Origin: Streptomyces sp. NBC_01353
Lineage (GTDB): Bacteria > Actinomycetota > Actinomycetes > Streptomycetales > Streptomycetaceae
DNA: 64,000 bases
Assembly (NCBI RefSeq): GCF_036237275.1
Contig: NZ_CP108352.1
Location: 3,968,001 to 4,032,000, forward strand
Direction of reading: 5' to 3'
The number at the start of each line of letters is the position of its first letter. Position 1 is the stretch's first letter. Below the pieces are notes generated by a model. That model worked only from the letters and a program-made list of their open reading frames with translations. It was not told where the DNA came from and did not search any database. Shown here piece by piece: positions 39,751 through 53,473 of the stretch. Position numbers and translations under genes: made by a program.

Positions 39751-40414
39751 GGAGTTCCTGCTCCGTCGCGCCCGTCAGGGCGTAGCGCGTGCGGACCAGC
39801 GGGCGGCCCGCGTAGATGCGGATCAAGGTGGACGCCTCTCCGTGGAAGTGGGCCGGGGGACGGCCGGCGATCCTGTTGCCGAGGGAGACGGGCTCGGGGC
39901 GGCCCGGCAGGATGCCGACGAGCGCCGGGGTCTCCCGTCTGCGGCTCGTGACCGACAGGAGCGGCAGCGCGAGCTCCAGGCTGGCGCCGCAGTACGCGCC
40001 GGGGGCGCCGAAGGCCTCCCGTACGTCTCCGGCGTGGACCCACTCCCCCAGCGCCACCGCGTCCAGCGTGCCGTCGGTCTCCGCGATCACCGGGCCGGCC
40101 TCCGTGAAGCCGCGCTCCAGTTCGTCGAGGATCCGGCCGAGCGGCCAGGACTCCCGCTCGGCGACGTCGGCCGCGTTGGCCTCCGGCAGGAAGACGCCCT
40201 CCTCGAGGCGACCCTCGACGATCCTGACGAGGGCCGCCGCGCAGTGCGCGAGCACCTGCCGGGCCGTCCAGCCCGGGCAGGCGGTGCGCAGGTCGAACGA
40301 CGCCTCCGGAGTGCGCCGCAGCAGCGGCATCAGCGCGTCCCGTTCCGTCCGCAGCAGCCGGTCCGGGAGCCACGGATCACGCGCATCGGGGTCACGCACG
40401 TCAGTCGTACACAT
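39737..40414 (-). CDS. Maleylpyruvate isomerase-family (mycothiol-dependent type) protein
   Basis: A 225-residue DinB-like protein with the four-helix maleylpyruvate-isomerase N-domain (ACPGWTARQVLAHCAAALV) whose members use mycothiol or act in detoxification. The GEWVHAGDVREAF segment carries the usual His. It overlaps the ahcY stop by one base, so it is the last gene of the 13-gene operon. Its role there may be thiol chemistry on the product; that is inference. Confidence 0.8.
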   Translation of the reverse strand: MCTTDVRDPDARDPWLPDRLLRTERDALMPLLRRTPEASFDLRTACPGWTARQVLAHCAAALVRIVEGRLEEGVFLPEANAADVAERESWPLGRILDELERGFTEAGPVIAETDGTLDAVALGEWVHAGDVREAFGAPGAYCGASLELALPLLSVTSRRRETPALVGILPGRPEPVSLGNRIAGRPPAHFHGEASTLIRIYAGRPLVRTRYALTGATEQELLIYR

Positions 40415-41820
40415 CAGTAGCGGTAGAGGTCCGGCTTGTACGGCCCCTCCACCGGGACCCCGATGTACGACGCCTGCTCCGGGCGCAGCTCGGTCAGCCG
40501 CACGCCCAGCGCGTCGAGGTGAAGGCGGGCGACCTTCTCGTCCAGGTGCTTCGGCAGGACGTACACATCCGTCGGGTACTCCTCCGGCTTGGTGAAGAGC
40601 TCGATCTGGGCCAGGGTCTGGTCCGCGAAGGAGTTCGACATCACGAACGACGGGTGCCCGGTCGCGTTGCCCAGGTTGAGGAGCCGGCCCTCCGACAGCA
40701 CGATCACGACCTTGCCGTCGGGGAAAGTCCAGGTGTGGACCTGCGGCTTGACCTCGTCCTTCACGATGCCGGGGATCCGCGCGAGCCCCGCCATGTCGAT
40801 CTCGTTGTCGAAGTGGCCGATGTTCCCCACGATCGCCTGGTGCTTCATCCTGGCGATGTCCGACGCCATGATGATGTCCTTGTTGCCGGTCGTCGTGATG
40901 AAGATGTCCGCCGTCTCGACCACGTCGTCCAGCGTCGCGACCTGATAGCCGTCCATCGCCGCCTGGAGCGCGCAGATCGGGTCGATCTCCGTGACGATCA
41001 CCCGCGCGCCCTGCCCGCGCAGCGACTCCGCCGAGCCCTTGCCGACATCGCCGTAGCCGCAGACCACGGCCGTCTTGCCGCCGATCAGCACGTCCGTCGC
41101 CCGGTTGATGCCGTCGACCAGGGAGTGCCGACAGCCGTACTTGTTGTCGAACTTCGACTTGGTCACGGCGTCGTTCACGTTGATCGCCGGGAAGAGCAGC
41201 GCACCGTCGCGGTGCATCTCGTACAGGCGGTGGACACCGGTCGTGGTCTCCTCCGTCACACCGCGGATCTCGGCCGCGAGCGCCGTCCAGTCGATCGACG
41301 TGCGCTGCAACAGCTGGAGGACGACGCGCAGTTCGTCGTTGTCCGCCGTCGACGGGTCCGGCACCTCGCCCGCCTTCTGGTACTCCACACCCTTGTGGAC
41401 GAGGAGCGTGGCGTCACCGCCGTCGTCCAGAATCATGTTGGGACCGACGGCGCCGGGCCAGGTCAGGGCCTGCTCCGTGCACCACCAGTACTCCTCCAGG
41501 GTCTCGCCCTTCCAGGCGAAGACCGGGATCCCTGCGGCGGCGATCGCGGCGGCCGCGTGGTCCTGGGTCGAGTAGATGTTGCACGACACCCAGCGCACCT
41601 CGGCGCCGAGCGCGACGAGCGTCTCGATGAGAACGGCCGTCTGCACGGTCATGTGCAGGGAGCCGGTGATCCGGGCGCCGGCCAGCGGCCGGGCCTCCGC
41701 GTACTCCCGGCGGATCGCCATCAGGCCGGGCATCTCGTGCTCGGCCAGCGTGATCTCCTTGCGGCCGAAGTCGGCGAGCGAGATGTCGGCGACCTTGTGG
41801 TCGGTGAATGCGTCAGACAT
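40414..41820 (-). CDS. ahcY: S-adenosylhomocysteine hydrolase
   Basis: A 468-residue enzyme that splits S-adenosylhomocysteine into adenosine and homocysteine, relieving product inhibition of methyltransferases. It shows [13 protein letters not shown], the NAD site GYGDVGKG, and the C-terminal KPDLYRY tail that completes the active site. ATG 41820 has AAGGAG 8 bases ahead and overlaps metF by 8 bases. The neighbours MetK, MetF, MetH and a kinase make a full methyl cycle. Confidence 0.97.
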
Positions 41821-42685
41821 GGACAACGCTCCTTGAGCTCTGAATCGTTCGGTGGATTTCCAGGGCCGCCGTGGACCTGTTGAGCGTGATGTAGTGCAGA
41901 CCCGGCGCGCCCTCGGCCAGCAGCCGCAGGCCCGTCGCCGTCGCGTGCTCGACGCCGATCCGGTACGCGGTCGCCGGGTCGTCCTTGGCCGCCTCCAGGC
42001 GGTGGGCCAGGTCCTCGGGGAAGGCGGCGTCGCTCAGCTCGGCGAACCGGCGGATCTGGCGGACGTCCGTCGCCGGCATGATCTCCGGGATGATCGGCGT
42101 CCCGCAGCCGGCGGCGGCCACCCGGTCCCGCAGCCGCAGATAGTCCTCCGCGTCGAAGAACATCTGCGTGATCGCGTAGTCCGCGCCCGCCCGGCACTTG
42201 GCGACGAAGTGCGCGAGATCGCTCGCGGCATCGGGCGACCGGGGATGGCCCTCCGGGAAGGCGGCCACCCCGATCCGGAAGTCGCCCAACGAGCGGACCA
42301 GCTCGACCAGTTCGTACGCGTACGTGAAGCCCTGCGGGTGCGACGTCCAGGTGCCCCGCGGGTCGCCCGGAGGGTCCCCGCGCAGGACCAGCACGTCCCG
42401 TACCCCCGCGTCCGCGTACGCGCCGATGATGGCCCGCAGCTCGGCCACCGAATGCCCGACGGCCGTCAGATGGGCGACGGGCCGCAGGGTCGTCTCGGCG
42501 GCGATCCGCTTCGTGACGTCGATGGTCCGGTCACGGGACGAGCCACCGGCGCCGTACGTCACGGAGACGAAGTCCGGCGCGAGCGCCTCGACCCGCCGGA
42601 TCGCGTCCCACAGCACGGCCTCCCCGCGCTCACTCTTCGGCGGGAAGAACTCGAACGAGAACGTAGGCGCACCCGCCGCGCTCAC
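41813..42685 (-). CDS. metF: Methylenetetrahydrofolate reductase
   Basis: A 290-residue MTHFR that reduces 5,10-methylene-THF to 5-methyl-THF, using [12 protein letters not shown] at the N-terminus, [14 protein letters not shown] and the QMFFDAEDY segment are typical. GTG 42685 overlaps the metH stop (GTGA). It supplies the methyl donor for MetH next door. Confidence 0.95.
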
Positions 42686-52061: not shown

Positions 52062-52913
52062 TCACGCGGCGAACCCCGGGCCGGTGCCGGAGGCTCCCGG
52101 CAGGTCGCAGGTGAACAGGAAGGACCGCGGCACGCGCGGCACGTTGCGCGCCGGGACCGGGTACGGCCAGCGGTCGAAGTCGGCGCCGTCCTCACCGGGC
52201 TGCTTGACCTCGCGTACGTCCCAGCCGCAGGCGGTGAGCAGCGCCTCGGGCTCCTCGGTGCCGAAGAGCCACGGATTGCCGTCCTCCCTCAGCGCGCTGA
52301 GGAACGGACGCGACAGCGGGTTCTCCAGGGCGGCCCGGGAGATGACGTCGCCGAGCAGCACGGAGCCGGGCGCCGCGTGGGCGGAGAGCGTCGAGATGAG
52401 GGTCCGTACGGCCTCCTCGGGCAGGAAGAACAGCAGGCCCTCGACCACCCACAGGACGGGCTCGTCGCTCTTCCAGCCGGCCTCCTTCAGGGGGCCGGTC
52501 CAGTCCTGGGTCAGGTCGACCGGGACGGTGATCCGGGTGCGGCCGGCCGGCAGGGGCTCGTCGGCGAGCATCTTCGCCTTGGCCTCCAGGAGGGCCGGAC
52601 GGTCGAGCTCGTAGACGGTCACGCCGTCGGGCCAGGGCAGGCGGAAGAAGCGGGTGTCCATGCCGGCGGCGAGGAAGACGATCTGGCGGATGCCCCGCTC
52701 CTCGACCGCGCGCACGATGGCCCGGTCCAGGTAGGTGGTTCGGATGGCGAGGAACGGCACGGTGCCGGCCCCGGCGTAGCGCTCGAGCAGTTCGAAGCCG
52801 ATGTCGTCGGCGACGGTGCGCGCGTAGGGATCGGCGAACAGCCGGTCCTCGCGCTCGGTCTCCAGGGCGCGCGCTGCGGCGGTCCACTGGGCGGTGCGGG
52901 ATACGGCCTCCAC
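52062..52913 (-). CDS. SAM-dependent methyltransferase, LCM/TIGR00027 type
   Basis: A 283-residue methyltransferase of the leucine carboxyl methyltransferase fold (PF04072). The signs are RTAQWTAAARALETEREDRL, FLAAGMDTRFFRLPW and YELDRPALLEAK. It may methylate a carboxylate or an oxygen of the product. GTG 52913 has a GGGGGA site in front; no alternative ATG is in frame nearby. Confidence 0.87.
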   Translation of the reverse strand: MEAVSRTAQWTAAARALETEREDRLFADPYARTVADDIGFELLERYAGAGTVPFLAIRTTYLDRAIVRAVEERGIRQIVFLAAGMDTRFFRLPWPDGVTVYELDRPALLEAKAKMLADEPLPAGRTRITVPVDLTQDWTGPLKEAGWKSDEPVLWVVEGLLFFLPEEAVRTLISTLSAHAAPGSVLLGDVISRAALENPLSRPFLSALREDGNPWLFGTEEPEALLTACGWDVREVKQPGEDGADFDRWPYPVPARNVPRVPRSFLFTCDLPGASGTGPGFAA

Positions 52914-52957
52914 AGGAGGTCCCCCTTCATGTGATGGAGAGATTCGGACGGCCGTGT

Positions 52958-53473
52958 TCAGGCGCTGACGCGCGCACAGGCAACGGGGTCCTCGGCGGCG
53001 GGCATCGACGACAGATGTGCGGCCTCGGAACCGGCGGGACGGCGCCGGAAGATGCTGTGCAGGATCATGCTGAACACGGCCGTCCCGTCGGCGGCCACGA
53101 GCGTGCACCGCGGTTTGACGGTGCCGGTGGCGGGATTGAACGGCGACGGGGTGGAGCCAAGGATCTCCACGCGGACGGTCAGGACGTCCCCGGGTCGTAC
53201 GGGACGCACGTAACGGACCTCGTCGATACCGGGCGAGCCCATGCAGGCGCTGTAGGCGAGCAGTCCGTCCACATAGCGCCGCATGAACATCGCCTGGGTG
53301 TGGAAGCCGCTCGCGATCAGCCCGCCGAACTGCGAGCGCGTGGCGAGCTCGGGGTCCGTGTGGAAGGGCTGCGGATCGAAGCGCCTCCCGAACTCCAGCA
53401 CCTCCTCCGTGGTGACGGTGACGGTGCCCAGTTCATGGACGTCGCCCGGCCGGAAGTCCTCGAAGTAGCGCAT
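52958..53473 (-). CDS. MaoC-like dehydratase/hydratase
   Basis: A 171-residue hot-dog-fold protein beginning MRYFEDFRPGDVHELGTVTV. The catalytic Asp/His of R-specific enoyl hydratases fits the segment FDPQPFHTDPE. It acts on acyl-thioesters, so it may dehydrate an ACP- or CoA-bound intermediate. It is the first gene of the operon, and a strong promoter lies upstream. Confidence 0.88.
   Translation of the reverse strand: MRYFEDFRPGDVHELGTVTVTTEEVLEFGRRFDPQPFHTDPELATRSQFGGLIASGFHTQAMFMRRYVDGLLAYSACMGSPGIDEVRYVRPVRPGDVLTVRVEILGSTPSPFNPATGTVKPRCTLVAADGTAVFSMILHSIFRRRPAGSEAAHLSSMPAAEDPVACARVSA

What the first reader, a model, noticed from the sequence alone, without database searches (positions are those of the whole stretch)
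40414..53473. A compact operon couples an amino acid:ACP ligase and AurF-type N-oxygenase to a whole methyl cycle
Thirteen minus-strand genes, many with overlaps or gaps under 5 bases, encode MaoC, two methyltransferases, an AurF-like diiron oxygenase, a class II synthetase-like ligase, AcpS, ACP, MetK, a PfkB (adenosine) kinase, MetH, MetF, AhcY and a mycothiol-dependent-type isomerase. The complete SAM-regeneration set inside a biosynthetic operon is unusual. The enzymes suggest that a small amino acid is loaded on ACP, N-oxidised and methylated. The product is not known from the sequence.
Basis: partly seen in the sequence, partly recalled or inferred. Interest (0 to 1): 0.88.

Follow-up and report, generated by a model that had tools for sequence, protein, structure and literature searches.

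The report
Glycine-nitronate cluster with methyl cycle
A soil bacterium of the genus Streptomyces carries a conserved gene cluster that probably turns the amino acid glycine into a rare, reactive methylated nitro group, brings its own set of enzymes for recycling methyl groups, and adds enzymes related to the bacterial thiol mycothiol, so it may make a new kind of small molecule.

Summary
The genes are real, in a Streptomyces genome, and the operon is conserved. The finding undercounts the cluster: the mycothiol-type gene lies just outside its coordinates (39737-40414), a PLP enzyme and an MFS exporter precede it, and a block 5 kb away (27156-34699: second MshA, MetRS-like, SDR, PrpF-like, AsnB, PIG-L) belongs to it: a MetRS-like ortholog occurs in 24 of 24 operon-bearing genomes searched and in 0 of 9 with only related cassettes. 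The ligase-ACP-AurF-MT1 core fits the published glycine-derived nitronate logic: sister cassettes carry a nitronate monooxygenase instead of MT1, never both (111 loci). So glycine -> nitronate -> O-methyl nitronate on ACP is the best reading. The methyl-cycle genes are second copies, absent from three relatives, and the same five genes in the same order are published inside the furaquinocin cluster: a known, recruited supply cassette. New, as far as I found, is the union of the nitronate cassette with a mycothiol-type set (MDMPI, PIG-L, PLP enzyme, MshA). Whether mycothiol donates sulfur (glucosinolate-like) or protects the producer is open; PIG-L failed the Mca and MshB cut-offs. Product unknown; no chemistry tested.

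The parts
27156..28463 (-). second MshA (D-inositol-3-phosphate glycosyltransferase paralog)
   Evidence: TIGR03449 536.3 bits, cut-off 462.5; another MshA at 665.5 bits lies elsewhere in the genome
28581..30146 (-). MetRS-like protein, HIGH motif kept, KMSKS region degenerate by eye
   Evidence: PF09334 172 bits; metG 180 bits, below its 336 cut-off; orthologs in 24 of 24 operon-bearing genomes searched
30197..31108 (-). short-chain dehydrogenase (start uncertain)
   Evidence: PF00106 91 bits
31032..32060 (-). PrpF / 4-oxalomesaconate tautomerase-like protein (start uncertain)
   Evidence: PF04303 45.6 bits
32050..33885 (-). glutamine-hydrolysing asparagine synthetase-like amidotransferase
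   Evidence: TIGR01536 287 bits, over its 267 cut-off
33956..34699 (+). PIG-L family deacetylase/amidase
   Evidence: PF02585 95 bits; Mca 33 and MshB 25 bits, far below cut-offs; PDB relatives diacetylchitobiose deacetylase and LnmX
39737..40414 (-). MDMPI: mycothiol-dependent maleylpyruvate isomerase family protein
40414..41826 (-). AhcY, S-adenosylhomocysteine hydrolase (second copy)
   Evidence: TIGR00936 642 bits, over cut-off; other copy 87% identical
41813..42685 (-). MetF, methylenetetrahydrofolate reductase (second copy)
   Evidence: TIGR00676 324 bits, over cut-off; other copy 61%
42682..46137 (-). MetH, cobalamin-dependent methionine synthase (second copy)
   Evidence: TIGR02082 1384 bits, over cut-off; other copy
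46134..47117 (-). PfkB-family kinase, probable adenosine kinase (name recalled; no equivalog model passed)
   Evidence: PF00294 144 bits; other copy 60%
47120..48343 (-). MetK, SAM synthetase (second copy)
   Evidence: TIGR01034 541 bits, over cut-off; other copy 85%
48340..48597 (-). ACP
   Evidence: PF00550 21.7 bits, cut-off 20.8; D35-S36-L37 invariant in 11 rows
48611..49003 (-). AcpS-type phosphopantetheinyl transferase (may start at 49060)
   Evidence: TIGR00516 66 bits, over cut-off
49062..49967 (-). AAL: class II amino acid:[carrier protein] ligase
   Evidence: NF005479 132 bits (below its 357 cut-off), E 1.9e-38; PDB 3mey Bll0957 E 2.7e-24; C112/E140/C253 in 107, 107 and 105 of 107 rows
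50006..50899 (-). AurF-type diiron oxygenase
50927..51970 (-). MT2: winged-helix plus methyltransferase-fold protein
   Evidence: PF13847 and PF21320; best PDB match TnmJ 8g5s
52062..52913 (-). MT1: LCM-family SAM methyltransferase, proposed nitronate O-methyltransferase
   Evidence: TIGR00027 214 bits, over cut-off; not seen together with nitronate monooxygenase in 111 loci
52958..53473 (-). MaoC-like hot-dog hydratase/dehydratase
   Evidence: PF01575 61 bits; D33 and H38 invariant in 17 rows
53557..54771 (-). Cys/Met-metabolism PLP enzyme, proposed C-S lyase
   Evidence: PF01053 396 bits; nearest model methionine gamma-lyase 366 bits, below its 550 cut-off
54862..56295 (-). MFS exporter
   Evidence: PF07690 171 bits; homolog in 41 of 49 close loci

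Best explanation
A biosynthetic cluster of about 21 genes, cut in this genome by a 5 kb stretch. Proposed route: AcpS activates the ACP; the class II ligase loads glycine; the AurF-type oxygenase oxidises the amine to the nitro/nitronate level on the carrier protein; MT1 O-methylates the nitronate, giving an O-methyl nitronate acyl-ACP. MetK, AhcY, the PfkB kinase, MetH and MetF are a recruited second copy of the methyl cycle that feeds the methylation and removes SAH. MaoC, the MDMPI-type protein and PIG-L act next on this electrophile, most likely with mycothiol; the PLP enzyme then cleaves a C-S bond; the MshA/MetRS-like/AsnB/SDR/PrpF block makes or attaches a partner, and the MFS protein exports the product. 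Shown here: genes, families, folds, conservation and linkage. Inferred from a published homologous logic: glycine, nitronate and O-methylation. Inferred with low certainty: the mycothiol step and everything after it.
For: Ligase, ACP and AurF with conserved metal-site residues. MT1 within 6 kb of AurF in 82 of 111 loci, nitronate monooxygenase in 8 (PF03060 shown for L045, L047 and L172; the other five by similarity to these), neither in 21, both in 0 (5 of the 111 are duplicates): the fork that the title of He and Ryan 2021 states (title seen). [quoted passage not shown] A 107-tip tree puts NMO cassettes outside an MT1 clade, with MaoC, MDMPI/PIG-L and the full operon progressively inside it (exceptions and weak nodes in the full report). 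PIG-L is not seen without MDMPI: 17 of 17 loci. MetRS-like ortholog in 24 of 24 operon genomes given, 0 of 9 others; by coordinates on the same contig in 21 of 24, 7-42 kb from the ligase or operon (contig identity inferred).
Confidence: 0.6

Rival explanations
1. Mycothiol proteins are self-protection: the pathway makes a reactive O-methyl nitronate product; MDMPI conjugates it to mycothiol, PIG-L trims the conjugate, the second MshA raises mycothiol supply and MFS exports.
Against: MDMPI and PIG-L sit among the biosynthetic genes in the smallest clusters, and PIG-L is not Mca by the curated cut-off. It does not explain the PLP enzyme, MetRS-like, AsnB, SDR or PrpF.
Confidence: 0.25
2. The acyl group is attached to a glucosamine-inositol scaffold: the second MshA makes GlcNAc-Ins-P, PIG-L deacetylates it, the MetRS-like enzyme or a transferase makes an amide on the amine (MshA/MshB/MshC logic), giving a mycothiol-like conjugate.
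For: MshA paralog over cut-off, with a better-scoring MshA elsewhere; PIG-L is a de-N-acetylase family; an aminoacyl-tRNA synthetase paralog as amino-sugar ligase has the precedent MshC (PMC2922099, passages).
Against: PIG-L occurs without MshA or MetRS in the fetched stretch in 8 other clusters (L111, L112, L119, L120, L122, L123, L124, L171); for the 5 of these whose genomes were searched (L111, L112, L119, L120, L124) no MetRS-like ortholog was found. L122, L123 and L171 were not tested at genome level, and MshA was not searched in these genomes.
Confidence: 0.2
3. The AurF-type enzyme and ligase act on another amino acid or make only an oxime or hydroxylamine; the cluster is not a nitronate pathway.
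For: AurF-type enzymes do other chemistry: hydrazone oxidation assigned to Dob3 (PMC13061610, passages) and a proposed amide N-hydroxylation by LitN (PMC10616846, passages). Substrate cannot be read from sequence.
Against: Nitronate monooxygenase stands in place of MT1 in sister cassettes.
Confidence: 0.2
4. The methyl-cycle genes are a passenger with no bearing on the product.
For: Absent in 3 of 49 close loci; MetF absent in L025, L026, L080 and L084 although AhcY is present; the same five-gene set occurs in clusters for unrelated compounds (PMC9686526).
Against: MetK is found after ACP in 46 of 49 close loci, in some only as a fragment at the contig end; here five of the six junctions from ACP to MDMPI overlap by 1-14 bases and one has a gap of 2.
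Confidence: 0.1

Closest known systems
Glycine-derived nitronate cassette (enteromycin carboxamide, He and Ryan 2021; akazaoxime / A-76356)
   Same: Carrier-bound small amino acid, AurF-type diiron oxygenase, methyltransferase; sister cassettes with nitronate monooxygenase
   Different: Akazaoxime is proposed to load glycine by an NRPS (PMC9967187), here a stand-alone class II ligase and ACP; the passages read mention no MaoC, MDMPI, PIG-L, MshA, MetRS-like protein or methyl cycle
SAM-recycling set of the furaquinocin (Streptomyces sp. Je 1-369) and furanonaphthoquinone I clusters
   Same: S-adenosylmethionine synthase, carbohydrate kinase, methionine synthase, methylenetetrahydrofolate reductase, adenosylhomocysteinase, Orf8-Orf12, in the same order as here (PMC9686526, passages and gene table)
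   Different: Placed in a meroterpenoid cluster; sequences were not compared here, so common descent of the set is not tested
Lincosamide synthetase (LmbV, LmbE, LmbF)
   Same: A DinB-type protein and a PIG-L-type amidase related to mycothiol metabolism (PMC4351081, passages), with a PLP enzyme acting on an S-cysteinyl residue (PMC5518657, start of abstract in listing)
   Different: LmbE is 32% identical to Mca and LmbV keeps the His-Glu-His zinc site; here PIG-L is far below the Mca cut-off and the Glu is a Gly
MetRS paralogs of non-ribosomal peptide pathways (Iyer and others 2010)
   Same: MetRS-like protein in a biosynthetic cluster
   Different: Those have a fused or neighbouring cupin (PMC2922099, passages); no cupin among the cluster genes scanned here
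Plant glucosinolate route (recalled)
   Same: N-oxidised amino acid, thiol conjugation, trimming, PLP C-S lyase, transfer to the sulfur: the same order of enzyme types can be assigned here
   Different: Unrelated proteins, carrier-bound substrate, mycothiol in place of glutathione; only an analogy

Membership tests
Glycine-derived nitronate cassette | dedicated ligase and carrier protein beside an AurF-type diiron oxygenase | tested here: met
Glycine-derived nitronate cassette | methyltransferase or nitronate monooxygenase next to the oxygenase, not both | tested here: met
   MT1 here; 82 MT1, 8 NMO, 21 neither, 0 both of 111 loci
Glycine-derived nitronate cassette | glycine is the substrate; nitronate and its O-methyl form are made | not testable with these tools
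   needs an assay
AurF/CmlI N-oxygenase | Pfam AurF over cut-off, fold, carboxylate and histidine ligands | tested here: met
Amino acid:[carrier protein] ligase | class II synthetase relative of Bll0957 with conserved Cys/Glu/Cys (zinc role recalled) | tested here: met
   107, 107 and 105 of 107 rows, two rows gapped
Amino acid:[carrier protein] ligase | NCBIfam NF005479 curated cut-off | tested here: not met
   132.2 of 357 bits: a relative, not the same equivalog
Mycothiol-dependent isomerase / S-transferase (DinB) | family model over cut-off | tested here: met
   TIGR03083 76 of 50 bits
Mycothiol-dependent isomerase / S-transferase (DinB) | two-domain fold of MDMPI | tested here: inconclusive
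Mycothiol-dependent isomerase / S-transferase (DinB) | zinc triad His52, Glu144, His148 | tested here: inconclusive
   H57 and H127 invariant in 17 rows, Glu position by spacing is Gly123, D130 invariant
Mycothiol-dependent isomerase / S-transferase (DinB) | uses mycothiol | not testable with these tools
   needs an assay
Mca mycothiol S-conjugate amidase / MshB | curated model cut-offs | tested here: not met
   Mca 32.8 of 277, MshB 24.9 of 224 bits
MshA | TIGR03449 cut-off | tested here: met
   536.3 of 462.5 bits
MetRS paralog with cupin (hydrazine synthetase type) | fused or neighbouring cupin | tested here: not met
   none among the 20 proteins scanned with Pfam; the whole window was not scanned
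Activated methyl cycle | MetK, AhcY, MetH and MetF over their cut-offs | tested here: met
Activated methyl cycle | adenosine kinase | tested here: inconclusive
   PfkB family only

The most novel reading that the evidence does not exclude
A bacterial counterpart of the glucosinolate route: the O-methyl nitronate of Gly-ACP is a deliberately activated electrophile whose methyl group is thrown away as methanol (MaoC-type elimination to a nitrile oxide), mycothiol adds through MDMPI, PIG-L trims the conjugate, the PLP enzyme cuts the C-S bond and leaves a thiohydroximate. A sacrificial methyl group would give a reason for recruiting a whole second methyl cycle.
Probability: 0.18. Interest if true: 0.85.

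Novelty: new variant of a known kind. Interest (0 to 1): 0.55.

Why it matters
Glycine-derived nitronates are a young field with few products (my impression, recalled). This cluster family is not rare (9 of 150 Streptomyces genomes sampled have a ligase of 78% identity or more, the own genome counted; 49 distinct close loci), has no product that I could find, and joins the nitronate cassette to a mycothiol-type set. It gives a testable case of how bacteria might turn a carrier-bound nitro group into a C-S bond or handle such a reactive group. The methyl-cycle cassette is already known from other clusters, but its presence here widens the range of pathways that recruited it.

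Tried and rejected
Hydrazine/diazo reading (MetRS-like plus AurF, as in azaserine or dob): no cupin or lysine N-hydroxylase among the 20 proteins scanned with Pfam; rejected. Lincomycin-type membership: PIG-L is not Mca; kept only as an analogy. The second MshA as the housekeeping one: rejected, a better-scoring copy exists. Independent capture of MetK near L124: rejected, that genome has one MetK. Finding the akazaoxime cluster in Micromonosporaceae (150 genomes; 12 of the 18 matches were fetched): not recognised; it gave NMO-type cassettes (L172, L173), a minimal MDMPI/PIG-L cluster (L171) and nine distant AurF-ligase loci without MT1 or NMO. 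My first view that a methyl cycle inside a cluster has no precedent was wrong: rows led to the furaquinocin cluster with the same set, and mithramycin's has MetF- and AhcY-type genes (PMC7247220, passage); PMC10992897 and PMC7321100 (passages) added nothing close. For this I lowered the interest from 0.6 to 0.55. SAM-recycling genes in the saframycin cluster are recalled, unverified.

Literature: ten paper searches were answered. None of the rows shown was a paper on this cluster; several lists were cut (one search showed 20 of 171, 25 of 125, 25 of 70) and subscription papers are mostly missing, so this is no proof of absence. He and Ryan 2021 was not held; its content is recalled, only its title was seen.

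Full report
What is there. The window lies in a Streptomyces chromosome: G004, given as the same genus, has a contig of the same length and match coordinates as the record Streptomyces sp. NBC_00572. On the minus strand, from 56295 down to 39737, stand MFS, a PLP enzyme, MaoC, MT1, MT2, AurF, a class II ligase, AcpS, ACP, MetK, PfkB, MetH, MetF, AhcY and an MDMPI-type protein (map; families). The name adenosine kinase for PfkB rests on likeness and recall: no equivalog model passed.

The cluster is larger. Window 27156-34699 holds a second MshA, a MetRS-like protein, an SDR, a PrpF-like protein, an AsnB-like amidotransferase and a divergent PIG-L gene. In several relatives genes of this block directly follow MDMPI (for example L025, L026, L080, L099, L100). 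Here 5 kb of other genes lie between; one of 120 loci compared by megablast (L089, 657 bases) shares DNA with that stretch, but most of those loci end close to MDMPI. I gave 24 operon-bearing genomes (of 49 distinct close loci) and 11 others to a search for the MetRS-like protein. All 24 have an ortholog at 61-94% identity, in one of them (L117) broken into three pieces. Two of the others could not be searched (L122, L137); of the remaining 9, seven have only a 27-31% match and two none at E 1e-10. From coordinates, 20 of the 24 have it 7.4-41.5 kb from the ligase, and in L062 it shares a contig with the operon's MetK; L063, L071 and L079 appear to have it on another contig. Contig identity is inferred from coordinates. 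In this window the distance is 19 kb. Such linkage over distance argues for one pathway.

History. A FastTree of joined AurF and ligase proteins (107 tips) shows NMO cassettes outside, then an MT1 clade of 81 tips (support 0.94) in which L125 and L126 showed no MT1, a clade of 61 with MaoC (0.90; L032 has MaoC outside it), then loci with MDMPI and PIG-L (0.68, and 0.44 at the next node, weak), then a clade of 53 with MT2 and the PLP enzyme (0.995). The order is not clean: L120 (PLP) and L122 (MT2, PLP, MFS) have these genes outside that clade, and L109 lies inside without MDMPI, PIG-L, MT2 or PLP. The smallest MDMPI-type clusters (L112, L119, L124, L171) are AurF-ligase-ACP-MDMPI-MaoC-MT1-PIG-L with an FAD/NAD(P)-binding protein. 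PIG-L is not seen without MDMPI (17 of 17), while 19 loci have MDMPI without PIG-L inside the fetched stretch; three of these (L022-L024) show more than 3 kb beyond MDMPI.

The methyl cycle. MetK is in 46 of 49 distinct close loci; L099, L100 and L103 lack it although 9.2 kb beyond ACP is readable and MDMPI is there. MetH is in 38 of 49; of the 11 without it, 7 have at most 1.2 kb of sequence beyond ACP, L071 is rearranged and 3 are the loci just named. Four loci lack MetF (L025, L026, L080, L084). In the own genome each of the five has another copy. L099, L100 and L103 have one MetK in the genome. PfkB stays in L099 and L100 and is missing in L103, which also lacks the PLP gene. The same five genes in the same order are described in the furaquinocin cluster of Streptomyces sp. 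Je 1-369 as a complete set for recycling S-adenosylhomocysteine to S-adenosylmethionine, with an identical arrangement in the furanonaphthoquinone I cluster (PMC9686526). So the cycle is a recruited supply set of a known kind, old in this family but not needed for the pathway.

Verdict. A real and conserved branch of a known kind of pathway, for which I found no description. Product, substrate and the role of mycothiol need experiments.

Noticed in passing
window 36405-37069 (+): A small VapB-like gene followed by a PIN-like frame, as a toxin-antitoxin pair would look, in the 5 kb stretch that splits the cluster; judged by eye from the translation.
   Followed up: no
window 17935-20527 (+): By eye, a metal P-type ATPase followed by a CsoR-like regulator (first residues printed), unrelated to the cluster as far as seen.
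   Followed up: no
L129 and L100 (Streptomyces sp. HNM0574): A second nitronate-type cassette (AurF-ligase-AcpS-ACP-MT1) stands about 12 kb from the main operon's ligase on the same contig.
   Followed up: no
L107, L108, L110, L113-L116, L118, L121: Ligases 57-63% identical to this one sit beside an ACP without a detected AurF; in L108 with a KAS III-like protein and an FAD oxidoreductase: perhaps another use of aminoacyl-ACP.
   Followed up: partly
L174-L182 (Micromonosporaceae): Nine AurF-ligase loci (33-38% AurF) with neither MT1 nor NMO; L174 has a KAS III-like gene and a DUF3419 protein.
   Followed up: partly
L098 (Streptomyces misionensis strain 66): Only one MetK was found in that genome, at the operon's coordinates; assembly gap or loss of the other copy not checked.
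   Followed up: no
L071 (Streptomyces roseicoloratus): Operon with MetK and PfkB but without MetH, MetF and AhcY, and a second MetK 9 kb on: a rearranged copy or an assembly fault.
   Followed up: no
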